Origin: Thuidium tamariscinum
Taxonomy: Eukaryota > Streptophyta > Bryopsida > Hypnales > Thuidiaceae
Assembly: GCA_947034885.2 (NCBI GenBank)
Contig: OX344754.2
Coordinates: 21,470,501 to 21,534,500 of the forward strand
Length of the DNA: 64,000 bases
Reading direction: 5' to 3'
Under the pieces are notes generated by a model. That model searched no databases. It had not been told where the DNA came from and saw only the letters and a program-made list of their open reading frames with translations. This document shows, piece after piece, positions 1-64,000 of the stretch. Positions within the stretch are counted from its first letter, which is position 1. The number at the start of each line of letters is the position of its first letter. A program made the position numbers and the translations under genes.

Positions 1-58
1 TATTGTATCATATAGGTAGGTGACTTTTTTTTGTTTGGGCAAAGGTCAAAGTGATTAA

Positions 59-457
59 CTCCTAAAGGTCTATACACCATTTTTGGCAATATAGTGATTT
101 TGGATAGCTTATTTTGGATGGAATTTTTTTTTTCTTTAAAATTTTCACACAACATGTGTTTGAAGAGTAGCTTTAAGGTACAACAATTTTCATAACTTTT
201 GACTACATAGTTAAAAAGTTATTGAATAATATGTCATTTTCATCATTTGGTGAGCTACCCGGGTACATCATAAAACTTTTTTTAAATCCTTTTCTTAAGA
301 AATAAAAATTTGAAATTGATTTTTTAGATTTATATACACGTCAAAATCTTTGAATCATTCCAATTTGATTAATGAGATGAAAGTTATGAGAAGTTTTAGT
401 TTGTGGGTAGGTTTGAAGTCTATAGTATAGTATGATTATCATTTGAACCTTGAGGGA
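59..457 (+). mobile_element. TTAA-flanked non-autonomous element, short type A copy
   Basis: TTAA at 55-58 is followed by CTCCTAAAGGTC, and the other end reads GAGGGA then TTAA at 458-461. The inner sequence (a 'ggcaatatagtgattttgg' block near 87, a 'cataacttttgactac' block near 191) matches the left half of the longer copy at 5215-6300, so this looks like an internally deleted member. The ends are diverged and no coding capacity is visible. Confidence 0.5.
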
Positions 458-3706: not shown

Positions 3707-3710
3707 TTAA

Positions 3711-4548
3711 CCCCTAAGCGCTCAAGCGACCATTTTCTGGTCGCTGCCTGACTTCGGGCAGAATTTTCGAGCAAAAAAAAAACTTTTTTCAAATTTTTTT
3801 TTTTTCAGTTTTGAAAAAATTGGGTTTTCTTTCAACATTGATATTCAAAACTAAGATCAGTACAGTCAAACAAAAGTTATAGCAAAAAAAAGGAGAAATA
3901 GTACAAAGTGTCTAAAATTGCTTAGTGTTGAAAAACTTACTATTTGGGGTAATTACTGATGCTCTCATTAGTAAATACTTTTTATTTTTTTACAAGTCAA
4001 TAAAAACCATAGTTTTGACCAATCAAAAAAAATTTCAAATCATAAAAATAGAAATTTTATTTTTGGTGAATTTTTGAAGTTATATCTTCAAAATTCATTT
4101 GAAGAGAATCTATAAATATTTTTTAAATTTTGATCATATGTATACTTTCTACTTTTTGTGCTTTTCATTATCTTCTTTGATGCTAACTTCAAAAAAGTTG
4201 TAAAGCTTATATTTTATAACACATTTGTATTTTGTCTTAATCCCTTGGGCTTTTAGAGGTTGAATATTTTGCATTTTTCTATAAATCAATAAAAAACACA
4301 ATTTTGACCAATCAAAAAAAATTTCAAATCCTGAAAATAGAAATTGTATTTTTGGTGAATTTTTGAAGTTATATCTTCAAAATTCATTTAAAAATAATCT
4401 AAAAACATTTTTTTTACTTTGACTGTATGGATACTTTCTACTTGTTGTGCTTTACATTATCTTCTTTGATACTAACTTCAGAAAAGTTTTAATTCTTATA
4501 TTTTATAGCACATTTGTGTTTTGTCCTAACCCCTTGGGCTTTTAGGGG
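3711..4548. mobile_element. TTAA-flanked element with internal direct duplication (type C)
   Basis: TTAA (3707-3710) precedes CCCCTAAGCGCTCAAG, and the right end reads CTTGGGCTTTTAGGGG followed by TTAA (4549-4552), so ends are inverted and the TTAA is repeated. Inside, a block of roughly 280 bp that starts with 'gtcaataaaaaccatagttt' near 3986 is repeated from about 4286. A decayed right end ('cccttgggcttttagaggtt', about 4242-4261) follows the first block. Length is 838 bp, non-coding. Confidence 0.7.
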
Positions 4549-4718
4549 TTAATGTCCAAATGGACAAGAATAGATTCTAAACCTAAGAAAAACAATGAGA
4601 AATAATATGATTTTACTTTCACCACCTAAAATGTCTTTTTTAAAGTTCTCTTGATCAAAATTCATATTGAATATTCTTTGATTTGTTTTTGTCAACAAAT
4701 AAATTATGAATTTCTTAA

Positions 4719-5210
4719 TCCCTAAATAGGACCAAGCTACAGGTTTTTTGGCAATATAGAGATTTTGGGCACTTCATTGGCTCACTATTAATGGAATTAT
4801 TTTTGAATCTTTGTAATTTTCACACAACATGTGCCTAAGGAGTAGCTTCAAGGGACAACAATTTTCATAACTTTTGACTACACGGTCAAAAAGTTATTGT
4901 ATAATATGTGATTTTCTTTATTAAAAGGTCAATTTGAGCACTTCAAAATACTTCTTCAAAATCACTTTTTGTAAAACAAAAATTTGAAATTGATTATTTG
5001 TGTATGTAGGTATAGATATAAATATAGAGAGAGAAAGTAAGATAGGAAGCTTTGTATCATTCAATTTTGATTGATGAAATAAAAATTATGAGGAGTTATA
5101 ATTTACAAGTAGTTACAAAATCTCTAAAGGTTTTTCTACCTACAAACTAAAAGTCCTCATTATTATTTTTTAAATGGAATGATTTGAAGCTTTCTACATA
5201 TATATAAATC
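4719..5210 (+). mobile_element. Left-end fragment of a type A TTAA element
   Basis: TTAA (4715-4718) and TCCCTAAATAGGACC are followed by the type A signature 'ggcaatatagagattttggg' and the 'cataacttttgactac' block. No matching right end precedes the next element's TTAA at 5211. From about 5150 the sequence is an inverted copy of the block at about 5050-5110, so the fragment is partly palindromic. Confidence 0.5.
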
Positions 5211-5214
5211 TTAA

Positions 5215-6300
5215 CCCCTAAAGGACCAAACTGCTTTTTTTGGCAATATAGTGATTTCGGGCAGCTCATTACAGATGGAGTTTTTGGTTTTTTTCCTTTG
5301 AAATATTTACACAATATGTGCCCGAGGAGTAGCTTTAAGGCCCAACAATTTTTATAACTTTTGACTACATAGTGAAAAAGTTATTGGTTCATATGTAATT
5401 TCTCTACTGGGCGAGCAACCCAGGCAGCAAAAAAGACTTCTTCAAAAATCACCTTTTTAAGAAATTAAAATTTTTAATTGGTTTCTTTGATTTTTATCTA
5501 AGTGGAAACCTGTGAATCATTCCATTTTGATTAATGAGTCAAAAGTTATGAGGATTTTTAGTTTGAGGTACTTTTGGTTAGTTATAGAATCTCTATACTA
5601 CAAAAAAAGTTTGAAATTATTTATTTAATTCAATTTTTAATATTTTTGAAAAAAAACTAAAACATTGGGTGAATATTGTTTAACACAACATTACAACCAT
5701 TGGGATTGTCTTCTTTTAATTCATTAAATAAATTGTTAATAATTTAGTATTTTGGCTCATTTTCTACTTCTTTCTACTTACTATTTTTTTCCTATATGTT
5801 GTACAATTTCAAATGTTCTGAAAATCTTCAATCATATAGCCAACTTTACTTGAAAAATGAATCTAAAGAGTTACAATCATTTTGGACCATTTTCCACACA
5901 ATTATTGATAAAAAAAATATTATTTGAAAATCTTAGAATGCTACTACTCCTATATTGCAAGACATAATTCTACTACTTGTAAAAAGAAGGTATGAAAGAC
6001 TTCACATCGCCTTTGAAATTTGAACACCCTCATGATCAAACATTATAGTCTTTTGAAGTGCAGCTGCCCTGATTTTCACAATGGTAAAAAAATGATTTTT
6101 GTTACTTCAAACACTAACATCTTGCAATCTACACGGCAGAAGTTGCTGAAATTTTTTCCACGTCTTCTTAAACCTGAATTCTAAAAGATCCTATAATTAC
6201 TTTTTTCCTAAAATGTTTTTTTCTAAAAATTTGATAGTTGTCTAAAAAATGATAGTTTTGAAGCGGTTTTGGTGAAAACATAGTCAAAAACCTTTTGGGA
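5215..6300 (+). mobile_element. TTAA-flanked element, type A, complete copy
   Basis: TTAA (5211-5214) plus CCCCTAAAGGACCA opens the element, and the far end reads ACCTTTTGGGA followed by TTAA (6301-6304). The inner sequence is closely matched by 63347-64000 in the same orientation. It is matched in reverse orientation by 13949-14881 and 19042-20571, which helps define both ends. Only about the first 10-12 bp are inverted between the ends. There is no open frame of note, so it is non-autonomous. Confidence 0.75.
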
Positions 6301-6304
6301 TTAA

Positions 6305-7036
6305 AGTAGAAAAAAAGTTTTCAGCACATTGTGGGGTTGGATTTTTAGACTTTGAACATTGTTAACTTAAAATTTTTGCACTACTGAGTTTTGAGCTTTA
6401 AATCTCTCTAGTGAAGAATAGAATTGAGAATCTAGGGGGAAAAAAGAAATCCAAAAGTACTTAATTTCATTCTTAAGAAAAACTATTAAGTAGAAGTAGG
6501 TACAAGATAAAAGGAAAATCTGAAATATTTATATCTTTTAGATAAAATTAAAGTGCACTACTTTGAATGGTGAGATTGTTCTAACAAGTGAACTAAGTGA
6601 TGCAAAAAAAGAATTCAAAAATTTGAAAAATTGCATTTAGAAATGAATCTTATAAGTTAATTTTTTTCAAATAGATGCTCTAATTGCCCGAAAAACAAGA
6701 ATGTTCATAACTTTTTGATAACAAATTGAAATAAAATGAATCAAAGCTTTCCACATAGACAAAAATATAATCTATAAGAAAGAAAAAAAAATTCAAAAAA
6801 AAAAAATTATAATTTTTTTTGTGTTGCCCAAATTCCCCCCTCTCCCTTGTTTTGACCTTATTTGGGCATAACTTTTGTTCCCAGGCACTGATTGAAAAAA
6901 AGTTTGTATCCCCATGAAGATATTCAAATTTTCTATTTCAAAAAAAAAATTCAAAAAATCAGGACAAAATTTAAAGTAAAAAGGTACATGCCCCAAATCC
7001 CATTTGTATCCCAAAGGGACAATGGTCTTTTAGGGG
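6305..7036 (+). mobile_element. Type B TTAA-associated unit adjoining the type A copy
   Basis: It starts at the TTAA that ends the preceding unit and closes with GGTCTTTTAGGGG plus TTAA (7037-7040). The block around 6340-6430 ('actttgaac', 'tttttgcactac') recurs at about 33820-33910 and 51630-51730. Read together, 5215-7036 is also bounded by good inverted ends (CCCCTAAAGGACCA against CCCCTAAAAGACCA). It could therefore be a single 1.8-kb composite or two abutting units. Confidence 0.6.
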
Positions 7037-7040
7037 TTAA

Positions 7041-8404: not shown

Positions 8405-9751
8405 TCATGTCCACAAAGCCTCCCCCTTCTCCAAAGCTTTCATGGCTGGTTTGTAAAGCTGAAGCTCTGGTGACCGAGGCTGCATCGGAGTCGAAAGCTC
8501 AGAGGGTGGAGTGGCTTGGGGTGAGGATTTCAAGCTGGCAGCAGTGCTGGCGGATTGCTGCATCCGCATACACACAATCTCGGCGTTGGCGACGGCTAAT
8601 TGGTTTTGCAGGACGGCAATTTGTTGCTGCAGAGAGGAGATGGCACTCACGCAGCCGTACACCGGGTCTCGAACGCGCGCGTCGGCTTCGTAGACCATGG
8701 AGCTCACAGCGTCCCCTCGTTGATGCACGGACAGGTCCTGAGGTTAAAAATTGAATTTAATCAGTTTTTGCTCAGCACTCCAGAGTGGTGTACAACTCTG
8801 GACTAACCCACTTTTGTACCCTAACCACTGTAGCACAAACAGAAATCCAGAGCACTACAATATTGAAAAACTAGCCCACTTCTGAAGCAATGCCAGTCAT
8901 GTAATCAATTCTCTTAACAGACCATCAGGATACCAAAAAAAAACATCATTCGGCACAACCTGAGGCTAAACTAATAATCTACTTTGCATAGAAGATGAGC
9001 ATAACGGAGAGAGCTACTCGGTATTCGAAGCCGCAGATTAAGGAAGATTAGGTCTATAATAATTACACTATAAAAAAAAGAATAATAACACAATCCGCTG
9101 TATCTTTAAGGTAGATGTCACAATTCCACCTAGCTCCACCAAACTTCTATAATTTCACCAAGAAGCGTGCCATTCAAGAAAACAGCCCCAAGCTAAGATT
9201 TCGTTCGGGAAAATACGACTAGGTCTCATGTATGACTTGGTTAGACACCATTCTGACTCTGAAAATTCACTGCAATGTCCCTAAAATTTCAAGACTTACG
9301 GAACTACTCATGATGGGTTACATTTTCTCCTCGCAACAACCAGAAAATCCAAATTACTTTCTCAATCATCGGTTAGATTTCAGGATTCCAGTTCGCCATG
9401 CGACTGAGCTTTAGACAAGGTTATCGCAACCCTTGCATGGAAGAAAAGAATGCGCAAGAATGGAACCAAGAAAGAAAGAAAGAAAGAAAGGAAGGAAGGT
9501 TGGAAGGAAGGAAGGAAGGCAGGAAGCTTGCAAGCAAAGAGTCTCACTTGTAACATTTTGTTAACATTCGCGGCGCCGAACACTTTGTGCACGTTAGCGA
9601 ACTTCTGCGGCTCGTCCGGCGGGAAGTATGGCGCAAATACACAGTCGCGAGCACATCTTCGGCGAAGCAGCTTGCATGCAGCGCACGGCGACATTCCTGA
9701 CCCCATCTTGATAAACTTGGAGACTAATCCCACCAACCCGGCGTACTTCAC
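8405..9751 (-). CDS. LOB-domain (LBD/AS2-like) transcription factor, class I
   Basis: This is a plant-specific DNA-binding protein of the LATERAL ORGAN BOUNDARIES family, expected in the nucleus. Two exons are predicted: 9751-9548 and 8737-8405, with a GTGAGA donor and a CAG acceptor, giving about 178 residues. Residues 23-37 form the zinc-finger-like block CX2CX6CX3C (SPCAACKLLRRRCARDC). The GAS block follows (FAPYFPPDEPQKFANVHKVFGAANVNKMLQ in two parts around residues 39-68). Exon 2 begins DLSVHQRGDAVSSMVYEA and carries RVRDPVYGCV, then the leucine-zipper-like LX6LX3LX6 coil (LQQQIAVLQNQLAVANAEI), which marks class I. The intron sits at the position usual for class I members. The C-terminal 50 residues are Ser/Pro-rich and not conserved. 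The first Met is uncertain: Met1, Met16 or Met20 would all keep the domain, and the N-terminal MKYAG stretch is not typical. Which LBD subgroup it belongs to cannot be told by eye. Confidence 0.92.
9461..9530. repeat. GAAA/GGAA purine microsatellite in the LBD intron
   Basis: Runs of AAAGAAAG and GGAAGGAAGG fill this stretch on the plus strand. On the gene strand it is a pyrimidine tract starting roughly 20 bp after the 5' splice site. Long frames across it (Lys/Glu-rich on plus, Phe/Leu-rich on minus) are artefacts of the repeat. Confidence 0.85.
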
Positions 9752-11040
9752 AAAGAGCGCGGCAGACTTTTCTAAGAAGAAAAAACAAGAACAGGAAGTT
9801 GAACAATAAAAAAAAACTACTGCTGCCTTCGGGCACCCATTGTACTACCCATCGCAAGCAATCCACTATAATTTCGAAAAACGTCTCGTCGTCGCCGTGT
9901 CAAGAAGAACCATCTCGCCACTCCTCTATTCAAAACCTACAAATAATAAATTCCTCTTAATTTACAAAAACAATAACCCCCGCCCGGCCCAGAGTGGAGG
10001 ACACTTGGACTATTACCCCCCTGTCATGAAGCCATTGCGAAATTCTGAAGAAAATTTCAAAAGAGCGTTCCAGGAGAGTACTACACGAAAAACAATCCCC
10101 ACTCCCACCCACCAATCTCCCCAGAGTCAAAATAATACTCACAAATGATGACCCGATCAATAATGTCGCCCCACCGAATATCCTTCCCCCATCAAGCTAA
10201 CCCCACTCCCCAAAACGACCTTCCCCTTAAACCCCGAACGACAAAAAAGATTACAAACTTCTCGCAGCACCATTTTAATCGGAAAAGACGCAAATTAGAA
10301 ACCCACGACCCATTTCCTCTCTCGAATCAGAAATGAACGATCGCCAACAAACCCAACTCCCCAAACTCCGTCAACCTCACTCTTTCTCGATCCAATCGGG
10401 AACCAGTCGTCAGGAGAGCTTGCAGCACAAGAATTGGCGAGGGAGAGTCTGTAATTGAAACACCGAGACTGCGAGAGTGTGAGTCTGTGTGTGAGTGTGT
10501 GAGTGTGAGTGAGAGTGAGGGTGAGAGAGTGAGGAGTGGCCGGCAGGTCAACCAAGTGCAAGAGAAAAGTGGGAAGAGGCTTGAAGTGAATGCTTTTGAC
10601 GGAGCCGCAAATGAAATAGCGAGGAGGAGCCTGGAGAAGCGGAGAAGACAAGAACAAAAGGGATGTGATGAGAGAAAGAGTGAGGAGAAGGGGTTTGGCA
10701 ATTGTGGAAGAACTGAAGTGAAGAAGAAGAAGACGAGAGATCGTGGTACATGGGAAGAGTGAGTGCGGCCCGCGAACAAGATGTTCGAACAAGACGACGG
10801 CGACAGAGCTTTCGTTGTGCGCTTGAGTGGGAGTCTTCTTCTCCGAAATGGGCGTCGTTGACGAGATCGCCTGAGGGAGCGCCTTTTTTCACGCGGGGGG
10901 AGGTTTCCTCACTTCTTCTTAATCCTCCTCTTCCCTTTTATTTTTATCCACTTTTTTTAAAAAACTTTAGGCTTTCCACCTCCACCTCCGTCCCTTTCTT
11001 TTCCTCCCATTTTCTTTTAACATTATTGTCCTCCAAGGTA
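9752..11040 (-). promoter_or_regulatory. Upstream region and probable leader of the LBD gene
   Basis: This stretch is less AT-rich than the flanking desert. On the gene (minus) strand it is strongly pyrimidine-rich between about 10300 and 10900, including a (CA/CT)-type run opposite the GTGAGTGTGA repeats at about 10478-10535. Long overlapping minus-strand frames (150 and 165 codons) are Ser/Leu/Thr-rich with no recognisable domain, and fit a CT-rich leader or promoter rather than protein. No TATA box could be assigned with confidence. Confidence 0.45.
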
Positions 11041-12251: not shown

Positions 12252-12990
12252 GAATGGCCTCATTCCTCTATCATTGAATGTTGTGGTGTTTATTGCCCTA
12301 CCTAACAATGGCCTTTTTCCTCTATCTTTGATGTCATGGCATTTATTTCCTTATGTTATAGTAGCCCTCTCCCTCTATCTATGGACATTGTAGCATTTAT
12401 TACACATGTACTAATTGACAATGGCCTTTCTCCTTTGTCCTTAGACGTTGTGGTGTTTTATTGCCCTACTTCAAAATGGCCTTTCTACTCTATCTTTAAA
12501 TGTTGTGGCATTTTATTGCCCTCCTTGAAATTGGCCTTTCCACTCTGTCCTTAGACCTTGTGGAGTTTTATTGCCCTCCTTGAAAATGGCCTTTCCACTC
12601 TATCCTTAGATGTTGTAGAGTTTTATTGCCCTCCTTGAAAATGGCCTTTCCACTCTATCCTTAGATGTTGTAGAGTTTTATTGCCCTCCTTGAAAATGGC
12701 CTTTTCACTCTATCCTTAGACGTTGTGGAGTTTTATTGCCCTACTTGAAAATGGCCTTTCCACTCTATCTTTAGACATTGTGGTGTTTTATTGCCCTACC
12801 TAACAATGGCCTTTCTTCTTTGCCCTAAAAAGTTATTTTGTTTTTTGCCCTATTTGACAATGAACTTTGTCTTTGGATGTTGCTACATTTATTGTTCCAT
12901 TTAGCAATGGCCTTTCTGCCTTATAAGGTGTGTCTTCTTATATCCTTGGATGTTGTGAATATTTAGTACCTTTCTAAAAGTTTATAAAGA
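12252..12990. repeat. 55-bp minisatellite, roughly ten or more units
   Basis: The block ATGGCCTTTCCACTCTATCC...TTTTATTGCCCTCCTTGAAA recurs, with the central copies starting at 12586, 12641 and 12696, exactly 55 bp apart. Outer units are more diverged. As 55 is not a multiple of three, the reading frame shifts from unit to unit, which argues against a repeat protein. Confidence 0.85.
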
Positions 12991-13944: not shown

Positions 13945-13948
13945 TTAA

Positions 13949-14881
13949 TCCCTAAAGGTTTTTGACTATGTTTCCACCAAAATCACTCCACAACTATGAT
14001 TTCTAATACAAGTGCAATTTTTTTGAAAATAAACATTTTTTGACATATTTAATTTTAGGATCTTGTAGTTAGGTGGTTTGAAAAGATGTGGAAAAAACTT
14101 CAGAAATTTCCACCGTGTAGATTGCAAGATATTAACATTTGAACTAGCAAAAATCCTTTTTTTTATTCCTATGAAATCCCGGGCACTACTTTTCACAAGG
14201 TCACATTTGAATGAATAAATACTCAAAATGATGATTTTCCCTTGAATTCATTTTACAATTCAAATTGGCTATATGCTCAAAAAAATTTCAAATCATTTCG
14301 AATTGTACAATATATAGGAAAAAAATCGTAAGTAAAAAAAACTTGAAAATGCTTGAAAATACTAAGTTGTGAACAATTTATTTATAAAAATGAAAAATGA
14401 TAATCTTAATGGTGAAAATATTACAATAAAAAATCTTCATCCACTGCTTTAGTTTTTTTTCAAAAATTTCAAAAATTTAATTAAATAAAGAATTTCAAAC
14501 TTTTTTGTAGAGTAGAGATTCTATAACTACTCCAAACTACTCCAAACTAAAATTCCTCATAACTTTTGATTCATATATTGAAATGGAATGATTAAAATCT
14601 TTCCACATAGATAAAAATATGATAAAACAATTTCAAATTTTTATTTCTTAAAAAAAAAAAAAATTGCTGCCCGGGCTACCTACCATTCAAAGGAAACAAC
14701 ATATCATGCCAAAACTTTTTGACCATGTAGTCAAAAGTTATGAAAATTGATGGGCCTTAAAGCTACTTCTTGGACACATGTTTTGTGAAAATTTCAAAGA
14801 AAAAAAATAAAAACTCCATTCGTAGTGAGTTGCCCGAAATCACTATGTTGCCAAAAAAAATGCAATTTGGGGTTTTAGGGA
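13949..14881 (-). mobile_element. TTAA-flanked element, type A, reverse orientation
   Basis: TTAA (13945-13948) precedes TCCCTAAAGG, and GGTTTTAGGGA precedes TTAA (14882-14885). The content is the reverse complement of the type A copy at 5215-6300: 'tttttgactatgtttccacc' at the left matches that copy's right end, and 'aaatcactatgttgccaaaa' at the right matches its left end. Length is 933 bp, non-coding. Confidence 0.75.
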
Positions 14882-14885
14882 TTAA

Positions 14886-19037: not shown

Positions 19038-19041
19038 GTAA

Positions 19042-20571
19042 CCCCTAAAGTTCTTTGATTATATTTTAACCCAAAACGCTCCAAAACTATCATTTCTAGT
19101 TCAAGTATCAAATTTTAGAAAAATAACATTTTTAACACATATAACCCTAAGATCTTGTAGTACATTGGTTTGAAAAAATGTTTAAGAAAATTTAAAAGCT
19201 TCTACCATGTAGAGTGCAAAATATTAGTATTTGAATTGACCAAAGTCTTGTTTTGGACCTTGCTAAAAATCAAGCAGCTGTACTTCACAAGCTCACATTC
19301 GTATGAAAAAATGTCCATGTTGTTGGCACTTCTTTGGATTCTTTCTTTGAGTCAAGTTGGCTACATGCTTGAAAAAATTTCAAATCATTTTGAGTTGTAC
19401 AACATATAGAAAAAAAATAGTAAGTAGAAAGAAGTAGGAAATGATTCAAAGCACTAAATTGTTGACAATTTAGTTATAGAATTTTTTTAAATGCCAATCC
19501 CAATGGATTGCTTGTATTGTTGTAATAAACAATCTGCATCCAATGTTCTTGTTGATTTTCAATTAGGTTTAAAATTGAGTTAATTAATGGATTTCAAAGT
19601 TTATTTGAGAATATAGAATCTATAATTACCTATTAAGAAAAACTCCTTAAAACTTTTTATTCATAAATCAAAACTAAATTAGTGAAATCTTTGTATATAT
19701 ACATAAATTAAAAAAACCAATCTCAACATTTTTTTCTACAAAACTTAGAGTTATATGTAAAGTCTCACTGAAAACTCTAATTTGTATCTTCAAAGAGGAA
19801 AGAGGGTACCAAACTTTCTAATCTTCCAAAAAGAAAAAAGAAAAATTTGGACCTTAATATGAGGCAACCAATGAGTGAGCACTACACATTCTAAGAATGT
19901 AGCCACCAATGTCCCCACTCATTAGAAGAAATCTAAGGGCATTACAGGGCCATTTCAGGTTTGTTCCTGAAACAACTCCCAATGCCGCTGGCTATTGTCA
20001 GGCCGCCTTTAATTAATTAAATAAATAAATAAATATTTAGGTCCTGAAATATGAAAATAAGTCAATTTAAAAAAAATTAATTATGTTGTAGGGTCGCGAC
20101 CACGTAGGATTTGAATTCATAGGGTAGAAACTACATTCCTACAGTCTGAGAACTCGCAATCTCCTAATGCCCTCAAATTTCATCTAATGCCACTTTCCAA
20201 CCCTTATACCAAAGCTCTTACCATGCCTAGCGTGGGCCATTATAGGGTCCCAACTCAATTAATGTGTGTCAAACTTGCTAAATAAGGTTACAGAAGTTAG
20301 GATCAGAATTTGAAAATCTCTAGTTCACTTTACAAATAAATCTATTGATTGCTTCAAATTTGTTTGGATTGCCCAAGTTGAAAAAGAAACAAAATATCAT
20401 GCAAAAACTTTTTAACTATACAGTCAAAAGTTACAAAAATTATTGAACCTTAAAGATATTCTTCATTTATATGTTTTGTGAAAGTTTCAAAGGAGTATAA
20501 TGAAATCTCTAGTCACAGATACTTGGCCAAAATTTCTATATTTCCAAAAATGACAATTTGGTCCTTAGGGG
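19042..20571 (-). mobile_element. TTAA-flanked element, type A, reverse, with a nested insertion
   Basis: GTAA (a one-base change from TTAA) at 19038-19041 precedes CCCCTAAAG, and GGTCCTTAGGGG precedes TTAA (20572-20575). Both ends match the reverse complement of the type A copy at 5215-6300. It is 1530 bp, about 440 bp longer than that copy. The excess is roughly the size of the foreign block at about 19860-20290, which contains a repeat of the second family described below. Confidence 0.7.
19937..20190. repeat. Second dispersed repeat family, copy 1 (nested)
   Basis: It begins with a 'gttcctgaaacaactccc' segment, includes a 'gtcgcgaccacg' segment, and ends near 'cagtctgagaactcgcaatc'. Related copies lie at about 21413, 33484, 34560 and 51078. 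It interrupts a type A TTAA element, so it inserted later. Confidence 0.55.
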
Positions 20572-21412
20572 TTAAATCTTGTTGGATGTTGAATGGTTCA
20601 AATTCAATATTCTCTTTTGTATGCAATTTTTTTTATTCTTGTGTAAATAAGCTTTGAATTTTCAAGGTGGTGAAATAAGTTGCATCCAAAATCAAACCTA
20701 GGCTCTCATGAATAAAGTTGAAATGTACAGTTTAGGCAAAAATATATATGGGTTTGATTTTGAACCAAGACATAGTTCAATATGTGCATTAACTTCACAT
20801 GATGCACTAAATAAACTTCTCAATTTTTGACATTAAAGTCAATCAAAAAATAAGATGTAATAAACTTAAAATATTTTGACATTCTTTCTGACACCAAAAT
20901 GCCAAAATAATGTCAAGTTCTTTTTTGAGGGATTTAGCATTAAAAAAAGTGTTGAAAATTTACACTATCAATAAGAGTGTCAAGAAGAGTGTTGAAAAAA
21001 ATGTGTTTGACTTGAAAATTCATACCTAATTTCAACTATCTTTTGTGATTATAGAACAAAGTGGTTAGGGTCCCTTCCACTTCTAGGACAAACACTTATC
21101 ATTGATGCAGAACCCACCTTCAATCCCAATCATTGATTTCTCATTTTGGGGGAGAAAAAAGGGCCACAAAGAGGAACAAGTCCCTCAGCACGCATTCAAC
21201 TAGGAAATTTGCAATGGTTGATCCTGGTAGTCCTTCTCCCACCAAAAAAAACCACCATTGGATATGGATATGGATACTCTAATATATATAGTATGATAAC
21301 AATGTAGAAGATACTTACAAATACAATCAAGGAATATACATATGAAAAATAATATATAAAAAAATATAATCCATCTCAATTGGTTCATGATATCCAATAA
21401 AAAAAATCATAA

Positions 21413-25212: not shown

Positions 25213-28200
25213 TTACGTAAGAGATGAATCTATGTGGCATTTATGCAGCTGAAAAGCCGGAGTGACGCGAGTGCCACAACTACATTGGATGCCCGCCCAG
25301 TTGAAACTACCAAGCCTCGCCTCGCAGTTCAAGCATTGGAGCTTTCCTTCATACACGCCATCTTGCACTGTGCCATCCGAGAACGACATTTGAGAAAACA
25401 GCACATAATTCTGGGATTCATCAAAAGTTCAAAAGTTAAATTATTCTTTAAAATACTATTCGAGGAAAACGGGATAATTTTATTAAGATAACTTACTTAT
25501 ATAACTCTTAACCCTTAAGAGCCCGAAAGAGTTCTGTGCCTACAAGAGTCGAGAAAAGTCAACTAGGAAAGCAAAACAAAATGTAGCAATAGATTACAGA
25601 AATAATGTTCTACATTCTGATAGACGATAGAACGATAGAACGATAGAAACCAATGTTCTGAAAGTTAGTTTCATTTTCCATGAGGTTCCAATTTAACGTT
25701 CTATTCTTTGCTTGGGCATATCGGTATTAATTCAACAGTATTTCCTAACCAGTAACCAGAGCAGCAAATTTATGCCGCAAAAATCAGAGTAATACTTTAG
25801 ACACACAAGTCTAAACAGACAAAATAGACATACATTGGAGTAGCATACTCCCCAACAAAGATGTCATTCTCGTGGGTTTGACAAGTAGGAGAGGGGTACA
25901 TAAGAACCTAGCTACTTGCTGTGATTCCTCTCATTGACCCAAAAGTGAGATCTCAGCATCCACAATCGCATGCATATCATCCGTCTATGCCCAACAACTA
26001 TCTTGGACCTAGACCCGTTATGGAGTCCATATGGAGACTCAGACACACAGAAATACCACGTCGTATGCTGGTAAAATTCCCACTAGAAGTTTCAAGATAT
26101 TCTTAATCCAACACTGCTTCAAATTCGAATTGAACCACAATTTCCAACACTTCTTAATAAAATTATGCATTAAGAGCACTATTCATTAGATTCACCCCTA
26201 AATTTTGACTACAAAAAGGTCATTCCTCCCACTTCGAATGACTCTCTTGTGCGTCAATTTTTAGAATTTGGAGAGAATTTTCAATGTACATGTAGAAAGA
26301 ATATGTGCACTTCACTGTATTATTACCTGAACTCATCCACTGCATGGGCTCAACAAAAAGGGACGTGCATGCAGGGTCATCATCCTCGCCTCCCCAGCGC
26401 CGAGCACCCCGCCGTCTCCACCTGAAAGAGCTCTCACCAGACATGGAATCGTGAGGAATCACATTCTCCTGATAGGCTATCACTCGCTTGCACTTTTTGC
26501 AAGAGTAGCAGGCCTGTTGTGAAGAAGAAGACACCCCATCCTCTTCCTCAGACTTATTTGTGGTGACCACCCCCGGATCGGCAGCATAACGAGAGCTTTC
26601 GATCTTCTCCCCCCTCCCAAAGGCTTCGCCTGGATTGCAAACAATCCAATTAAATAATGCCTTACTCCATTCTAGCTAGTTGAAGCAAGAGAGAGAGAGA
26701 GAGAGAGAGTTCCTCCTTGCCTCTCTCTACTTGCCTACTAATACTTCTAGAGGGATGAGTAATAGCAAGTGCTTACCCAGATTCTCCAGATGAAATTTTT
26801 TGAATGAGCGGTTCCTTCGGTCCACCACGTAGCCCATTTCCTCGAATAACTGCAACTGCAACCATGGGTACGTTCATTCGTTTGCGTTAGAGATGCAATT
26901 AGGAACTTGGAGCCTGTTCTCGGTTGCCTATACCATGAAACTGTAGAGGACTACAACAAAACCGTTGTCCAATTATATACTTATGCTTTCTAGGAATACC
27001 CCCTAAATGTCAAAATGGTCAAAATATGACTACATGCATATCTAAAGAATATAGGAAGTTTCAAGGACGATATCAAAACCTACCAATAGAACGAAAAAAA
27101 TCATGTCCTACAATTTTCAATATAAATGTGTTTTGGATCGACTGTTTCCACAGCGAACCACAAGGAATAAGCCTGTAATAACAATTACCTGCTGCATAAA
27201 CCCATAGTTCGGGTATACTTTACTACTCACTTGCTGCAAGGATGCTAGTGCTCCTGCATATAAGAAAGAAAACACTCTCATCAAATTGCAGAAAGTAAAA
27301 AGACTAGGCAAAGAGAGAACATTTTCTTGCACAACTGCAAAATAAATCCAATAGTGTGAAACATGCTTCAGCTACTACCACAAATCAGACTATCAACGAA
27401 ACTGATAGATTACCCCAAGAATCATAGAAAATGTCCAAACTTGTGAATATCCAAAGCAAGAAACATTCAAAAACTTCGATTTCACCAAATTGGGGGGATA
27501 ATGTCCCTCATGTAACAAACATCACGATGCCAATAACTGAAAAAAGATAACAAGAGAAGAAAACACGGGAAGAAGCGAACCATCTACAGTGCATTGATCC
27601 AAGCGCATCAAGTAGGCAGTAATAACAGCCGCACTGCAGATTTCAACATCACAAATTTTAGACCATCTCTACTGATAAAATTGCGAAACCCAGACAGCAG
27701 CAAGATAGGGTGAATAAAAATTCAAGAGAAATGTTTCAAAACTCAGTATGCCGCAGTACAGCCAGCAAATCAATACTAAGGGAGACATGTTGAAAATCTC
27801 CATGGCCCACTCGTTGAAATCATAGGTCTCCAGTTGAAGAATAGAACCAAAAACAAAATTTAGACCACATGAAGTATTGGGTGCACAAATTAGAAATTAA
27901 CGATTGTCACTGCATGGAAGCAAAACTTTTGCTAAAACTTGTACCAAAAACTGCGCCAAAAATTGTACCAGAACTTGTGTTCTAAGAAACTATTGGGATG
28001 TACAGTCAACTGCTCTTGCCTGCGAGAGACGCCCGCCACGCAGTGCACCAGAATCTCGCCTTCGATGCGGCCTTTCTCGATAAACTCCAGGCAGGCCTCC
28101 AAATGATCCAACAAATTCTGGGATTCGATGTCTCGAATCGGTACAATTTTCCTCTCCAGCTTGTCGACCTCCACACTGGCGACATCGACGACTTCCAAGG

Positions 28201-33769: not shown

Positions 33770-34476
33770 ATGCAAATTATTGGAATGACTTCAAGTTATT
33801 TTGAGATTGAATTATTTGACTTTGAACCTTCTTAACTTAAATTTTTTGCACTACTTAGTTTTGAGCTTTAAGTCTTTATGGTGCAAAATTCAATTGAGAG
33901 TCAAGGGAAAAAAATTGATTAAATTTTTTTAATAATTTTCATTCTTAAAAACATTGTCAATAATAAGTAGGTACATGATAGAAGGAAAGTCTAAATTATT
34001 AATATCTTTGAAATATAATTAAAACATAATAATCCCAATGGCAAGATTGTTTTACAATAGGAAAAATACTGCACCATTTGGAACTTATTTCTTAAATTTT
34101 TTTATAATTGCATATCCTACAAATTATTTTTTCAAGAAGATGCTTAGTTTGCCTAAAAAACAAGATTTTTCATAACTTTCATGTAACTTATTCAAAGGAA
34201 ATGAATCAAAGCTTTCCACAAAAGCAAAAATATAATTCATGAGAATTTTTATTTATTTTTAATTCAAATTTCTTTTGGATTTTTATTGCTTGGTCTCCTT
34301 TGTTTTAAGCATAATGAATATAATATTTGTTCCCAAGAACCAATTGTGAAAAAATTATACTCCCAAAAAGCTAATTAGTTTTTCTATCTTCAAAATTTTT
34401 TTAAAAAATCATGACAAAAATTGAAACTATATGTATTTGCCTAATATCCAATTTGTCCAATGGTCATTAGAGATTC
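33770..34476 (+). mobile_element. Type B TTAA-element relative, decayed
   Basis: The blocks 'actttgaaccttcttaac', 'tttttgcactact' and 'aatgaatcaaagctttccac' recur in the same order as in 6305-7036 and 51394-52299. The right end (caatggtcattagagattca) is a decayed form of CAATGGTCTTTTAGGGGTTAA. No intact TTAA boundary remains. Confidence 0.5.
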
Positions 34477-40060: not shown

Positions 40061-40099
40061 ATGCCATGGATCAATGTCAATGTATGATAATATCATCAA

Positions 40100-42095: not shown

Positions 42096-42103
42096 TTGAT
42101 TAA

Positions 42104-43055
42104 CCCCTAACCGTCCAAAAGTGTCCTCACACAGTCTAGCAGCCAACTTCAAAGTGCTGTAACTTTTGCATCTGATGTCAAAATTTAATAAAACTTGTTG
42201 TGAAAGTTGCGCATAGAAGTCTAGTTTCTATGGTAAAATTTTCAGATCAATCCAAGTCTTATTGAATTTTTGGCATCCAATCAAAACCTAAGTTTACCAA
42301 ACTGCATTCTAGGGCTGCAACTTCGGGGGCTTGTATCTTTTTCATTCAATGCTTGATTTCAATCAAATTTGTTGGGTTTTGTTTGCCTTGAAGTCTAGTT
42401 GTTGTGGTAAAATTTTCATGTCAATCCAAGTTGTTTTGAATGTTTGAGAGCAATTTGAAGTTCAAAATCCTATCATTTTTTGAGTGCAGTGAACTTTGGT
42501 GACTTATAACTTGTTTCTACATGGTTCATTTACAACAATTTTTGTTGAAAAAGTTGAATATATTACTCTACTTTTTGTGGTTCAAATTTCATATAAATCC
42601 AAGAATTAATGAGTGACTAAGAAGCAATTTAGTAAAGAGAGGTTCAACGATAGATGTGATTTTTTGCTACTTTTTTCACTGTTTTATAACACTTCAAAAC
42701 AATTTTGCAAACACAATGAGTCAATTTAATGATATTTTCGTTCACTAAAGTTTTTTTTTTCTTTTCGAATCATTTTGGAGTTTAAAGTTTAAATTCATTT
42801 GAGTAGTTTTTAGAAATCAAATTTCACCTCCAAATGTGTTTTTAAGAAAATTTCAGCATCTTTTTTGAAAACTTAAACATTATAATCTTTCAATCTATAC
42901 GATCAAATGACTCCAAATTTGATCTACAACATCTTTAACATGCACACTACAAGATTGTACGGTTCAGGTTTTTCATATATTACTCACATTTAGACTTATA
43001 ACACTTGAAAAGTAAAGTTATTTTTTGATATGGTTGGGGCTTGGGCAGTGAGGGA
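42104..43055. mobile_element. TTAA-flanked element, type D
   Basis: TTAA (42100-42103) precedes CCCCTAACCGTCCAAAAG, and GGGCAGTGAGGGA precedes TTAA (43056-43059). A second possible right end, CACTAAAGGG plus TTAA (43804-43807), lies downstream, so the element could extend to 43803 with the MITE at 43309 nested in it. Internal words such as 'tgtggtaaaattttca' near 42229 and 42405 are repeated. Confidence 0.55.
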
Positions 43056-44545: not shown

Positions 44546-46150
44546 GCTCAAAAAGCGATAATTTAAGTGCTGATGTGCTTTTTTCATGTATTTTATGAGA
44601 TGGAAATATTTTTAGTTTTATTTTTCAGTTGAAGAGAAATAGATGAGAAATCTAACATGAGTCGTTTCATATTTTTTGAAGCATTATTGAATTAGTTATG
44701 AATTTTCAAACACAATCTGGTATAGTCCCTATTTGTGATCATAGGCCCTTGGAAACCCATCCACGCATAGTTTGAAAATAACCCAGGGCTTGTTCAAAAA
44801 CTACAATAGCACTGCAACATGTATAAAGCAATACAAATGGTTTCTAAAACTTTCCCTTCCTAAATTTGAAATGAATGCTTGTACTAATCATTATTTTAGA
44901 TTTTTCAATACTTGTAAGAAGGAAGTTGAACAACAAATTCTTACTTTGAATTAAATTAATAAATGCCTAGCTACTTAGTTAGAATTGAACCTAGTATGGC
45001 TCTTAAACCATCCATTGAAGAAGTAAACACAAATCTTCTTAAGGTCCATTGTAATCCACAGTTCATTTTCCCACAATTCAAGTGTCCAGATGGTTGAAAA
45101 TGCCGTTTAGTTTTAGAGCCCTCTCCTGTACATGTGAATGAATTTTTTTTTCTTAAAAAAAATTCAGAGATGAAATTTCATATTTTCTTGAAATTATGCT
45201 ACAAAAAAATTTAGATTGTTTTAGGTAGAAAATTCATGTACTAGAATTTTTTTGAAGAACCAATGAAGGAAAATTATATCAAATAGAAAATAATCACAAA
45301 ATTTAAACTGAAAATTTCACTTGTGTATACCAGCCTTTTTTTTTTTTAATTTTTAAGAAAGTGCCAAGATGGTGATTACTTCAAATTTGGTGAAGCATTG
45401 AATTTCTACATTCATCCGTGTTTTGGATAGTTAAAAAACACTTTTCCATCATATTCATATACTTTTCCATTGAAATTGGGTGACTTTGTCCATATTTTAA
45501 AGAGAACTGGAAATATCTGGTGAAAAAAGAATACTTTTATTTGGCGAAAAAAAGACATTTATTTTGAAATGGTGCAATTTGGCCCCATGGTGTATACTAC
45601 AGTGAAGAACATAATTATAGAGTAAATATAAGTTTTGTGTCATTCCACAATTAAGATTTAGTAGACATTAGTAATACACCCAAGGTTCAAATTGCAATAA
45701 AATATTCATTTGGGGGATTTCTTTTTCAAAATTCATATTGTACTAGATACTAAAATAGATGAACTTCATTTCATTAGTTGGGCTTAAACTCATAAATATC
45801 ATTCTTATTAGGAAATTTGAGATTTAGAACAAGGAGCAATAACTTCTTTCAATAAACTATAATAGTGTATGATTGTGATCTTTATTTTTTACTAATATAT
45901 CATGTTCCTATTAAAGACAAACATTGGCAAATTCAATTGCCAATTCTTCATAACCCACCATAAAAGGTCAAAAGAAAAATGTGGTTCATAAAAGAACACT
46001 CTAATTTCCATTCAACTCATTTGATTGCCATCCAAACCCTACAAATTGGAGTTCATTATGCTTCAAGGTTAAAAAGAAAATGGTGAGTATGTGCATATAA
46101 AATCAAATGGTGATATTTTATTGTAGATGGGGTAAATTAGCAAAGTATTA
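44546..46150. other. AT-rich intergenic stretch, nothing recognised
   Basis: No gene or bounded element was supported. Confidence 0.5.
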
Positions 46151-49868: not shown

Positions 49869-49872
49869 TTAA

Positions 49873-50543
49873 ACCCTTATGTTCCTTAACTATGTTTTCA
49901 TCTAAAATGCTCCAAAACTACCATTTCTACTACAAGTATAATATTTTGGGATAATCAAATTTAAGAACATAAAACCATATGATCTTGTAGTATGCAAACT
50001 TGAGTACATGTAGAAATTTTTTAGAATTTTTCATTTCATTTTTTTGTATTTTTTCAAATCATTGCTTGAAAAATATCAAATCATTTCAAATTGTTCAACA
50101 TATAGGAAAAAAATAGTAATTAAGTAGAAATTAAATAAATAAAAATTCATTTCAAATACTAATTTGTTGAGAATTTAGTTATGGAATTGAAAAATTCCAA
50201 TTCCAGTGGTTTTAATGTTACAATAACAATCTACATCCTATGATTTATTTTTTTCAAAAAATTGAAAATTGAATAAAATAAAAGATTCATTGAAAAAAAT
50301 GGAATGATTCAAAATTTATATGTATATATATTGTGCCCAAATTGTCCATTTACCAAGAAAAGTAACATATTAGGCCATAACTTTTTACTCATATTTCCAA
50401 ATGTCTTGAATTTTAGTATTCATGAAACATAATCCTTGTCTTCACCTTTTAATAAAGTTTAGGCCTAAAACTTGAAAATCTATTTACACTTAACCGCCTA
50501 AAATTGCTACATTGCCAAATTTAACAAGATGGTCCTTTACGAG
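49873..50543 (-). mobile_element. Type A TTAA element, reverse orientation, short
   Basis: TTAA (49869-49872) precedes ACCCTTATGTTCC, and GGTCCTTTACGAG precedes TTAA (50544-50547). The interior has the reverse type A signatures 'ttttcatctaaaatgctcc' and 'ttgttcaacatataggaaaa'. Length is 671 bp, so internal parts are missing. Confidence 0.65.
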
Positions 50544-51077
50544 TTAAAGAAAGACTGTATGAATTGACATTTGACAAGCTATTATTTCAAATCATGCTAA
50601 CTATCTAATTAACTTTAGTGAAAGAAAATTTGCCAACGTTAAAAGTTCAACAATGCTATACATATCATTTTAGAAGTTGTAATACCAAGGCAATCCAAAA
50701 TCATTCATTCAAATCCAACAAAACATTCATTCAATTTTTGTGTAGTAGGTTACAATGGAGATGCCCTCTTCATTATTCATTCTTCAAAGTAAGGGACCCG
50801 CTTTTCAATATTTCATTGTCCTTATTTGGCCCTAAATTTTAAGGAATTTTTTTTTGAAGGACATTTAAAAGAAAGAAAGAAATCCAAGCACTTTAATATA
50901 AGTAGTTGGCATATAGTGTTTTTGTGTTTATAGTCTAAAATTGGGCTCTGAAAAGCTAGTTGAGTGACATCTAACTATGTATTTTTGTAGAAAAGGAGGT
51001 TTTATACTAATTAATTTTAATTTGAGATGTAAAGACAAACATGTTAAAAATTGTATAATTTAACCAATTAGAGGAGT

Positions 51078-51393: not shown

Positions 51394-52299
51394 TGCCTAA
51401 AGGACCAAGGTCTTTATTTGAAAAAAAAACCCACTTAAAATTGCCATTTCAATAGTAAAGAGCAAAAAAAAGAAATTTAAAGGTTTTTTTTTGCCCATTT
51501 AACCATAGGATCTTACACCAAACTATTATGAGAATGTTTAGAAAAATTCTCAAATTTTTTTACTATATAGATGCAAGATATCTACATTTAAAGATTTCAA
51601 AAACAAGTTTTTTCAGTATAATGTGGAACTAAATTATTTGACTTTGAACCTCCTAAATTTAAATTTTTGCACTACAAAGTTTTGAGCTTCAAAATATTTA
51701 TAGAGGAAAATTGAGTTCAAAGTCTAGGACAAAAAAAATACTAAAGAACTTAATTTTTTTTTAAATTGTTAAATAGAAGTAGGTACAAGATAGAAGGAAA
51801 ATTTAAATGATTAATATCTCTAAGATGGAATTAAAATGCACTAATGCCAATGGTGGGATTGTTCTAACAAGAAAAATAAACCACATGAATTTTTTTTAAA
51901 TTATAAAAATTACGTTCAAAAATGAATTTTACAACTTATTTTTTCAAAAAGATGATCAAATTAAAAATAATTTTTTTCTAAAACTTCCTCAAAACATTTC
52001 CAAATGGAATGAATCAAAGCTTTCCATGTATATAAAAATATAATCTATGAGAAAAAGAATTTATTTTCTTAAAAACTCAAATATTATAAAACTTTGGCTT
52101 GCCCCTTCTTGCTGCTTTTGAGCTTATTTGGGCATAATTTTTGTTCTTACACATTGATTGAAAAAAAAAATTCCTATGAAATTAATTAGTTTTTCTATCT
52201 TCAAAAACAAGTTTCAAAAAATCAAGACAAACATTGAGACCATAGGTACGTGCTCGAAATCTCACTTATCCCGCAAAAGAACAATGGCCCTTTAGAGAT
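51394..52299 (+). mobile_element. Type B TTAA-element relative, decayed ends
   Basis: The left TGCCTAAAGGACCAAGG and the right CAATGGCCCTTTAGAGATT are decayed forms of the CCCCTAAAGGACC ends. Interior blocks match 6305-7036 in order. The flanking TTAA is no longer intact. Confidence 0.5.
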
Positions 52300-61979: not shown

Positions 61980-63060
61980 TTATAAATTTTTTTTCTATGT
62001 ATGAAAACTGAACTGATTCTTTCCATTTTGATTAGTATTTCAAAAATTATAGAGCTTCTTGTTTTGAAGGCAATCATAAAATTTTCTTAGAAAAATAACA
62101 CATTGGATCCATTTTTTCATTCCTAAAGTTCCAAGAGTTTCTTGGAGGATTATTGAAGGTTTTGACATGCACCTATGATTTTAATTTTTGGTTACATTAT
62201 TTTAAAACTTGTTCTGAAGATAGAAAAATTGACTAGCTTTTTGGAATATAAATTTTATTTCAATTAGTACCCAAAAGAAAAAAGTATGCCATAAGAAGCC
62301 CAAAATAGGCAAAGGAGAGTTATACATATATAAATTTTTTTTCTAAAAATGATTTCTTATAAATTATATTTTTGTATATATTGAAAAGCTTAGTTCATTC
62401 CATTTTGATAAGTAATGTGAAAGTTATGGAGGTTTTTGTTTGACAGGAATCTTAGCAAATTCTTGAGAAAATAATATATTAGATCCATTTATGAAATCAA
62501 TTTCAACAATTCAAAAAAAATTTGCTTTCTAGAAAATCTCAATAATAAAAATAGTGTCTTTCACATCCATCTTAGAGTTATTAATAATTTAGATCTTCCT
62601 TCTATCTCCCACTTTGACTTAACAATTATTTTTAAAAAAGAATAAAAACCATAAGTTTAAAAAAAAATCCATCTCAAATTTTCAATTCAATTCTTCAACA
62701 TAAAAAAAATTTAATCTACAATTTGCAAAACAAAACTTTTTAAATTAAGAGGATTCAAGGCCTGTTAATCTAGTTAGGCTTTGAGCAAAAAAAAACAATT
62801 TTCTTTACTTTAAACACATAATTCTCGTAATTGATATGGCAAAAAAATTTGAAATTTCTCCCAAACATTCTCATACTAGTCTAGTGCAAGCCCCTACATT
62901 TGAATATACCCAAAAAATTCTTGAATTTTCTATTGTTTGCATTGAAAATGACAAATTTGAGTGGTTTTGACTTAAAAAATGGCCTCGGAATTGTTGAAGT
63001 TATCTCAATTTTTACAATTTATTTTTGCACAAGATTTAGTTTTCAACTCTCACCAAACAC
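61980..63060 (-). repeat. Decayed TTAA-element-like sequence, reverse orientation
   Basis: Words such as 'attccattttgataagtaatg', 'aaagttatggagg' and 'cataagaagcccaaaataggc' resemble type B segments of 6650-6870, some inverted. No bounded ends were found, so limits are rough. Confidence 0.35.
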
Positions 63061-63346
63061 TACAGAATATTGATGGAAGCTTAGAGAACTACTCATTCTA
63101 ATTCAAACATCATTTCAATTAAGCAAATCACTTGAATTTCAACCCTCTCAATCTCCTTGATGATACTATCTCTTGAGAGAAAGTAATTTCAATTTATGAT
63201 TCATTTGGTAATTGATGTTGGTGACTAAGTCATGACTATAATCAAAGACATACATAGGAGCCCCCTAAACTTAGAATCTAGTAGAAATGAGTAGAAACTA
63301 TCAATAATAGGGCACAACATGCAAGATGGATAAGAAGTCAAATTAA

Positions 63347-64000
63347 CCCCTAAAGGACCAAATTGTGTTTTTTCGCAACATAGCAATTTGGGGCAGCTCC
63401 CTATAGATGAAGTTTTTCTTTTTTTTCTTTGAAGTTTTCATACAACATGTGTCCAAAGAGTAGCTTTGAGGCCCAACAATTTTCATGACTTTTGACTATA
63501 CGGTTAAAAAATTATGACATGATATGTTGTTTCCTTCATTCAGTGGACAATCCAAGCAACAAAAAAAACTTCTTTAAAAATTACTTTTTTAAGAAATTAA
63601 AATTTGAAATCATTCTTTTTAATTTTTATCTAAGTGGAAAGCTTTGAATCATTCCATTTTGATTCATGAGTCAAAAGTTATGAGGATTTTTAATTTGAGG
63701 TAGTTTGCAACTAGTTATAGAATCACTATACTATAAAAAAAAGTTTGAAATTCAATTTAATTCAATTTTTAATATTATTGGAAAAAAATAAAAATATTGG
63801 GTGTATATTGTTTAACACAACATTACAACCATTGGAATTGTCTTCTTTTAACTCTATAAATAAATTGTTAATAATTTAGTATTTTGGCTCATTTTCTACT
63901 TCTTTCTATTTACAATTTTTTTCCTATATGTTGTACAATTCCAAATGATCTGAAAATTTTCCAACATATAGCCAACTTCACTTGAAAAATGAATTTAAAG
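63347..64000 (+). mobile_element. Type A TTAA element, cut by the window end
   Basis: TTAA (63343-63346) precedes CCCCTAAAGGACCAAATTG. The sequence then follows 5215-5880 closely to the end of the window, including 'gttttcatacaacatgtgtc' and 'cctatatgttgtacaatt'. The right end lies outside the window. Confidence 0.75.

What the first reader, a model, noticed from the sequence alone, without database searches (positions are those of the whole stretch)
5211..7040. Family of TTAA-flanked miniature elements with CCCCTAAAGG ends: possible piggyBac-type MITEs in a plant
At least nine sites (59, 3711, 5215, 6305, 13949, 19042, 42104, 49873, 63347) show TTAA directly outside ends that start CCCCTAAAGG or a close variant, with an inverted copy and TTAA at the other side in most. 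Type A copies occur in both orientations and share both boundaries, so the ends are real and not chance. TTAA target duplication plus a short inverted end starting with CCC is the mark of piggyBac elements, which to my knowledge are rarely described from land plants. No transposase is in the window, so the assignment to piggyBac is inference from the ends only.
Basis: partly seen in the sequence, partly recalled or inferred. Interest (0 to 1): 0.72.

Follow-up and report, generated by a model that had tools for sequence, protein, structure and literature searches.

The report
piggyBac transposons and miniatures in moss
A moss genome is full of short non-coding jumping elements of the piggyBac family, best known from animals, and it also carries full-length elements that probably move them, one of which spread recently.

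Summary
The genome has 8,526 exact TTAACCCCTAAAGG sites (controls 0 and 2) and at least 116 strong piggyBac (PF13843) transposase matches. The eleven transposase loci that I joined all have TTAA + CCC-type ends. Miniature ends match those of particular full-length elements, flush and in the right orientation: type A matches T33 (7.1 kb, CCCCTAAAGG at both ends; E 6e-29, 4e-17), type C matches T18 (E 1e-23, 2e-51); the best reversed control has E 2. Eleven copies of another family are nearly identical over 3,984 bases and stop at TTAA. Two empty-site comparisons show one four-base site. LEAFY points to a moss.

Unexpectedly, miniature subfamilies only 64-84% identical keep 931-932 bp; indels per substitution are four to five times rarer on lineages than in single copies.

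I saw no report of native moss piggyBac transposases in my searches, but plant piggyBac entries exist: a MITE superfamily in angiosperms and a superfamily table that includes land plants.

The parts
5211..6304 (-). Type A miniature element incl. both TTAA; ends CCCCTAAAGGACCAAA and TCCCAAAAGGTTTTTGAC; 144 extra bases at 5902-6045. Strand +: model left end (3' end of the full-length partner) first.
   Evidence: nhmmer A profile 5211-5901 E 3.8e-156 and 6046-6304 E 4.8e-59; TTAA at both ends
6301..7040 (+). Type C miniature element lacking its left 194 bp; abuts the type A copy at one shared TTAA (6301-6304)
   Evidence: model 195-931, E 5.1e-138; the C copy L002 has an internal TTAA at the same place
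3707..4552 (+). Type B miniature element, 846 bp, with an internal 288-bp tandem duplication
   Evidence: 5' end 77% identical over 101 columns to the 5' end of T31; 98% identical over 813 bp to a copy beside T10 in L056; duplication
13945..14885 (+). Complete type A element, 941 bp, TTAA at both ends
   Evidence: nhmmer E 6e-196, model 1-932
19038..20575 (+). Type A element split by an insertion of about 600 bp (19744-20344); left flank GTAA, not TTAA
   Evidence: nhmmer 19039-19743 and 20345-20575
55..424 (-). Type A fragment with an intact TTAA-bounded end at 55
   Evidence: nhmmer model 568-933, E 1.8e-68
4716..5126 (-). Type A fragment
   Evidence: nhmmer E 5.2e-57
33811..34458 (+). Type C internal fragment
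   Evidence: nhmmer model 238-900, E 3.2e-85
42100..42238 (+). TTAACCCCTAACCG end of a further TTAA family; other end not resolved
   Evidence: 76% identical over 152 columns to an element end that lies beside T11 in L011
46866..47618 (+). Type A fragment
   Evidence: nhmmer model 143-911, E 9.7e-139
49869..50547 (+). Type A element with internal deletions, both ends recognisable
   Evidence: nhmmer three pieces, E 1.2e-30 to 2.2e-16
51396..52297 (+). Nearly complete type C element
   Evidence: nhmmer model 7-926, E 1.3e-131
62122..62988 (-). Type C element, ends eroded
   Evidence: nhmmer model 16-925, E 1e-84
63343..64000 (-). Type A element cut by the window end, exact TTAACCCCTAAAGG end
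   Evidence: nhmmer model 296-933, E 1.1e-139
44580..44710 (+). Paralogous empty site for the 7.9-kb transposase element T10: one TTAG where T10 has TTAA on both sides
   Evidence: 111 of 131 columns identical across the joined T10 flanks

Best explanation
The elements are non-autonomous miniature piggyBac transposons (MITEs) in a moss genome. They are mobilised in trans by full-length piggyBac elements of the same genome: type A by T33-like and type C by T18-like elements, type B perhaps by T31-like ones. A DDD transposase binds the CCC-type ends. Its C-terminal Cys-rich domain probably binds, as a dimer, the palindrome about 15-35 bp inside the 5' end. It cuts at TTAA and joins the element to a new TTAA, which is thereby duplicated. 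Shown: the transposases, the homologous ends, the TTAA boundaries, two empty-site comparisons, near-identical dispersed copies. Inferred: trans-mobilisation, the binding role of the palindrome, and present activity.
For: PF13843: 116 scored of 659 candidates, all 116 over the cut-off, best E 5.7e-80. The T33 frame hits solved piggyBat (1e-26) and piggyBac (1.8e-22) transposases. The three catalytic Asp and a KWWHR motif are present in 10 of 10 frames aligned (D268, D346 and D447 as the catalytic residues: PMC7351741, passages). All 11 joined elements carry a matching pair of CCC-type ends next to TTAA (the ends were sought with a TTAA+CCC-like pattern, so TTAA is given there). Type A matches T33 and type C matches T18 at both ends, flush. 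Eleven copies of the T20 family: ten differ from the eleventh at 1-2 of 3,984 positions, and all stop at TTAA before unrelated flanks. Empty sites. 5' palindromes: summed stems 82 against 55.4 +/- 3.7 in shuffles, 0 of 500 as high; 3' ends 44 against 43.6.
Against: No copy was shown to move. T33 and T18 are relatives, not proven helpers: the end regions match at about 63-71% identity. Type A's left end fits T18 (8.5e-16) almost as well as T33 (4.4e-17); its assignment rests mainly on the other end (6.3e-29 for T33, 1e-5 for T18). Type C carries the exact CCCCTAAAGG, but T18's own ends read CCCCTAAATG and CCCCTAAGTT. The central 327 (A) and 478 (C) bp match no full-length element that I joined. 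One junction search (T36) was inconclusive.
Confidence: 0.95

Rival explanations
1. The elements belong to another TTAA superfamily (Kolobok or Sola3), and the piggyBac transposases of the genome are a coincidence.
For: Kolobok and Sola3 also duplicate TTAA (recalled, not from a call). I did not search for their transposases.
Against: Ends of types A and C are homologous over 143-352 bp to the ends of piggyBac transposase elements T33 and T18; the best reversed control has E 2. T33 has the finding's exact 14-mer at both ends.
Confidence: 0.02
2. Tc1/mariner-like elements with TA duplication and a preference for TTAA: T-TA-[ACCC...GGGT]-TA-A reads the same as TTAA-[CCC...GGG]-TTAA.
For: The two readings give identical strings at filled and empty sites, so the empty sites alone cannot separate them.
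Against: The transposase between the ends is piggyBac, whose target is TTAA (PMC7351741, passages).
Confidence: 0.01
3. The miniatures are relics that no longer move; the family structure is old.
For: Window copies match the best fetched copies at about 64-82%, and many are truncated.
Against: Type C copies L064, L087 and L089 are 97-98% identical to each other, type A copies L066 and L069 98%, at different places and with intact ends. The T20 family has 11 near-identical copies, though that is another family.
Confidence: 0.1

Closest known systems
piggyBac (Trichoplusia ni) and piggyBat (Myotis)
   Same: DDD transposase (PDB 6x67 and 9c0f matches), Cys-rich C-terminal tail, TTAA target, palindromic internal repeat near an end (PMC7351741, passages); ends starting CCC (recalled for piggyBac).
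   Different: Host is a moss. Joined elements are 4.9-7.9 kb with stop-to-stop frames up to 1023 aa; T. ni piggyBac encodes 594 aa. The palindrome stands out at the 5' end only, whereas T. ni piggyBac has the repeat in both ends.
PiggyBac MITEs listed for angiosperms
   Same: Short elements assigned to piggyBac by ends and target duplication (PMC10004981, passage).
   Different: Here the assignment rests on transposase elements of the same genome with homologous ends, and the host is a moss.
Pokey and its MITEs mPok1 and mPok2 (Daphnia)
   Same: A piggyBac family (PMC3849761, abstract start) with autonomous and MITE groups in one genome (PMC4912750, abstract start).
   Different: Pokey inserts into a specific rDNA site as well as other places (same listing); the moss transposases are spread over contigs C1-C10, with no rDNA preference tested.
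Tourist and Stowaway MITEs of plants
   Same: High-copy miniature elements of plants.
   Different: TAA/TTA and TA duplications, PIF/Harbinger and Tc1/Mariner superfamilies (PMC10004981, passage).

Membership tests
piggyBac superfamily (full-length elements) | DDE_Tnp_1_7 transposase | tested here: met
   116 matches over the cut-off; T33 2.9e-79, T20 5.1e-79
piggyBac superfamily (full-length elements) | catalytic DDD triad | tested here: met
   all three Asp in 10 of 10 frames aligned; T33 aligned to piggyBac
piggyBac superfamily (full-length elements) | C-terminal Cys-rich domain | tested here: inconclusive
   Cys-rich tail visible by eye in 9 of 10 frames, T38's open frame stopping inside it; Pfam zf-Tnp_2 is far below its cut-off for T33 and unlisted for T20; fold not tested
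piggyBac superfamily (full-length elements) | inverted ends starting CCC | tested here: met
   11 of 11 joined elements, both ends; the ends were sought with a CCC-like pattern
piggyBac superfamily (full-length elements) | TTAA target site duplication | tested here: met
   identity of 11 T20 copies stops at TTAA (3' end only); T10 has an empty site with a single TTAG in the window
piggyBac superfamily (full-length elements) | seamless excision | not testable with these tools
   needs an excision assay or population data
piggyBac MITEs (types A and C) | ends homologous to a full-length piggyBac element of the same genome | tested here: met
   A with T33 and C with T18 at both ends
piggyBac MITEs (type B) | ends homologous to a full-length piggyBac element of the same genome | tested here: inconclusive
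   5' end matches T31, 101 columns, E 2.3e-14; the 3' ends agree by eye only over the first 23 or so bases
piggyBac MITEs | non-coding | tested here: met
   longest stop-to-stop stretch 54-111 codons in 7 copies
piggyBac MITEs | TTAA duplication | tested here: met
   18 of 18 paired copies, but by construction of the pattern; independent empty site for L071, 72 of 96 columns identical
Kolobok / Sola3 | their transposase between matching ends | not tested
   no search was made

The most novel reading that the evidence does not exclude
Types A and C are one ancient non-autonomous lineage that has co-diverged with its transposases (the T18 and T33 frames are 53% identical) while keeping its total length at 931-932 bp: only copies of that length have founded new subfamilies. 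Piggybac-type mobilisation in this moss would then measure the distance between the ends, through chromatin, looping or an internal factor. I know of no such length rule for DNA transposons of this size (recalled; not searched).
Probability: 0.35. Interest if true: 0.8.

Novelty: new member of a known kind. Interest (0 to 1): 0.6.

Why it matters
A 2022 review gives six TIR superfamilies for land plants, without piggyBac (PMC9033089, passages and table); other papers do list PiggyBac for plants (PMC4438587; PMC10004981), so the record is inconsistent. A moss with full-length piggyBac elements, one of them recently spread, and thousands of miniature copies of their kind would settle that native helpers exist in land plants. 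It also offers a native TTAA system for plant genetics, where the moth piggyBac is used today (PMC10905368, passages). The fixed length of the miniatures makes a mechanistic question testable: what decides which copies transpose.

Tried and rejected
Rejected: chance ends. Rejected: known structured RNA or coding content (no Rfam match in the window at the gathering threshold; short frames). The strong fold of L002 as single-stranded DNA (z -5.4, 0 of 20 shuffles) was not pursued; part of it comes from the inverted ends. Set aside: that the constant length is a coding-frame effect, since one-base indels persist over hundreds of bases before they are balanced. Possible artefacts of the length result: exact 14-mer ends select young copies; assembly errors in homopolymers would inflate private one-base indels. 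Counting in the list, events of 2 bases or more are 15 (terminal) and 6 (internal); I ran no test on that subset. Type A alone is not significant (p 0.07). The genome count of TTAACCCCTAAACG was never obtained. T36's junction gave no clear empty site: its best candidate passes the TTAA by only 3 bases. Of the 21 joined junctions compared with the sequence in hand, one search printed six rows that span the junction: L071 and T10, used here; a self-match of L065, a second, 65% T10 row and two 65-67% rows for W13945 that I judged too weak to use. Ten 3-kb stretches held one type A copy (955 of 30,000 bases), so the window (14.9%) is probably richer than average.

Full report
What was checked. The window lies in a 363-Mb assembly (G000:C6:21470501-21534500). 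TTAACCCCTAAAGG with up to 3 mismatches occurs 26 times in the window against 6.85 expected. The genome has 4286 + 4240 exact sites against 0 and 2 for the reversed pattern. Of the first 100 sites, the only ones listed, 18 neighbouring pairs within 1.5 kb face inwards against 0.8 expected, 2 face outwards and 1 points the same way. Profiles of types A and C cover 9,553 of 64,000 bases of the window and nothing in one shuffle or the reversal; of ten 3-kb stretches taken at 10 Mb of contigs C1-C10, one held a copy (955 of 30,000 bases).

Host. The window carries a LOB-domain frame (PF03195, 2.7e-20), a plant-specific family (recalled). The genome's LEAFY DNA-binding domain is closest to PDB 4bhk (358.5 bits; next best 277.4) and shares its Asp where the next two aligned chains have Gln. 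That 4bhk is Physcomitrella LEAFY, and that this Asp marks moss LEAFY, is recalled. The species is not known to me.

The transposase. PF13843 gives 116 scored matches out of 659 candidates, all 116 over the cut-off. I joined the surroundings of eleven. Each has a matching pair of CCC-type ends next to TTAA, 4.9 to 7.9 kb apart; the ends were sought with a TTAA+CCC-like pattern. The three catalytic Asp are present in the ten frames aligned, a Cys-rich tail by eye in nine. T33's frame matches piggyBat and piggyBac chains of the PDB (1e-26, 1.8e-22). No such frame is found in the window.

Linking miniatures and full-length elements. Profiles were built from 16 paired genome copies (5 type A, 11 type C; the two copies with large deletions left out). 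Type A matches T33: model 680-934 to its first 245 bp (6.3e-29) and model 1-352 to its last 350 bp (4.4e-17). Type C matches T18: its first 143 bp (1.2e-23) and last 309 bp (2.1e-51). These four matches reach the last base of both profile and element. Weaker hits: type A to T18 (8.5e-16 for the left end, almost as good as T33; 1e-5 for the right end), type C to T33 (1.8e-8, 1.9e-4), and both to T31's 3' end (A 3.3e-5, C 2.4e-13). The other eight elements have no hit below E 1; of the reversed controls one is listed, with E 2. T33 carries the exact TTAACCCCTAAAGG at both ends; T18 does not. Type B shares its 5' end with T31 (101 columns). The centres of A and C have no counterpart in the elements joined.

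Boundaries and empty sites. Eleven dispersed copies of the T20 family were compared: ten differ from the eleventh at 1-2 of 3,984 positions, and all end in GGGTTAA followed by unrelated sequence (3' end only). Neighbouring elements can share one TTAA (L022, L019), so TTAA belongs to the target. Two comparisons show the unoccupied state: the joined flanks of T10 align with window 44580-44710 (111 of 131 columns identical), which has a single TTAG there; the joined flanks of miniature L071 align with the next copy of a local repeat (72 of 96 columns), which has a single TTAA. A genome search with T36's junction was inconclusive. Such sites cannot separate a TTAA duplication from a TA duplication at TTAA; the transposase does.

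A site for the transposase tail. Fourteen 5' ends were looked at, some closely related (T20, T11, T13 and T09 share nearly the same site). In 11 of 14 the best imperfect palindrome is centred about 28 bases from the first T of the TTAA; in T33, T14 and T46 it lies elsewhere or is poor. Summed stem length is 82 against 55.4 +/- 3.7 in base shuffles (0 of 500 as high); eleven 3' ends give 44 against 43.6. In T. ni piggyBac a palindromic 19-bp repeat, present in both ends, binds a dimer of the Cys-rich domain (PMC7351741, passages). By analogy this is the likely binding site; the palindrome is kept in 3 of 4 type C subfamilies looked at (not L071), and not clearly in type A.

A length rule. The 18 inward pairs measure, TTAAs included, 704, 770, 915, 921, 925, 926, 929, 929, 930, 931 (four), 932 (four) and 939 bp. 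All 18 were fetched. They fall into seven groups at 85% identity, 64-84% identical between groups; six of the seven contain a 931- or 932-bp copy, the seventh is the 704-bp copy. By parsimony on 16 copies (704- and 770-bp copies left out), terminal branches have 34 indels for 543 substitutions, internal branches 10 for 787. Over four alignment settings the odds ratio is 4.3-4.9 with p 2.3e-6 to 7.7e-6; type C alone 4.9-5.2 with p 1.1e-3 to 1.9e-3; type A alone 3.2 with p 0.07. Copies thus change length after insertion, but copies with changed length have not founded lineages. Selection on length at the transposition step is the simplest reading; assembly errors and the bias towards young copies are the main alternatives. 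The T18 and T33 frames are 53% identical in the best local alignment (L018 and L033), so types A and C may have co-diverged with their partners.

Literature. A 2022 review gives six TIR superfamilies for plants: Tc1-Mariner, hAT, Sola, MuDR, PIF-Harbinger, CACTA; the string 'piggy' does not occur in it (PMC9033089, passages and table). Against that, a 2015 survey that includes 80 land-plant genomes lists PiggyBac among superfamilies found in all its groups (PMC4438587, passages), and a 2023 review lists PiggyBac among seven MITE superfamilies of angiosperms (PMC10004981, passage). Genome tables vary: 1230 pieces, 122 kb, in a fern (PMC6890710), one piece of 75 bp in a grass (PMC8319324), none in a legume (PMC9845207). 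My searches that paired piggyBac with mosses, bryophytes, Physcomitrella, Sphagnum or Marchantia showed me no report of a native moss piggyBac: in the moss paper whose hits I opened the word is 'piggybacking' (PMC10619864), and a Physcomitrella paper speaks only of the T. ni tool (PMC5505980). Most listed papers were not opened, and only openly licensed papers are held, so a report elsewhere is possible. The 2015 table lowered my interest score from 0.62 to 0.6.

Verdict. A known kind of element with full-length partners identified in a moss; the length rule is the part that would surprise a specialist and needs a genome-wide test.

Noticed in passing
C1:0-4.88 Mb copies L002, L063-L072, L083-L089: Miniature subfamilies 64-84% identical keep 931-932 bp; indels per substitution are four to five times rarer on internal than on terminal branches.
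   Followed up: partly
5' ends of T31, T20, T36, T11, T13, T18, T12, T38, T10, T09, T45 and type C right ends: Imperfect palindrome centred about 28 bases from the TTAA, at the 5' end only, with different sequence in the different clades.
   Followed up: partly
window 19744-20344 and L073 1947-2286: Two insertions inside type A copies share, by eye, ends like AGAGTTAT.TGTAAAGTC and CTTTACAAATAA.TCTA: perhaps another miniature transposon family.
   Followed up: no
window 3974-4550: Type B carries a 288-bp tandem duplication (88% identical); a 98% identical type B copy lies beside T10.
   Followed up: no
window 12289-12928, 39550-40081, 926-1338: Tandem arrays with units of about 55, 55 and 73 bp.
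   Followed up: no
L002 1501-2432: As single-stranded DNA this type C element folds better than its shuffles (z -5.4, 0 of 20).
   Followed up: no
window 9380-9844, 27932-28399, 60078-60566 (minus strand): Exon-like frames: LOB domain, dual-specificity phosphatase (below the Pfam cut-off), proteasome subunit.
   Followed up: no
C9:9824638, C1:35710485, C8:9874880, C1:42521344, C2:21540582: Five further SAM_LFY matches besides the LEAFY gene (6 matches in all).
   Followed up: no
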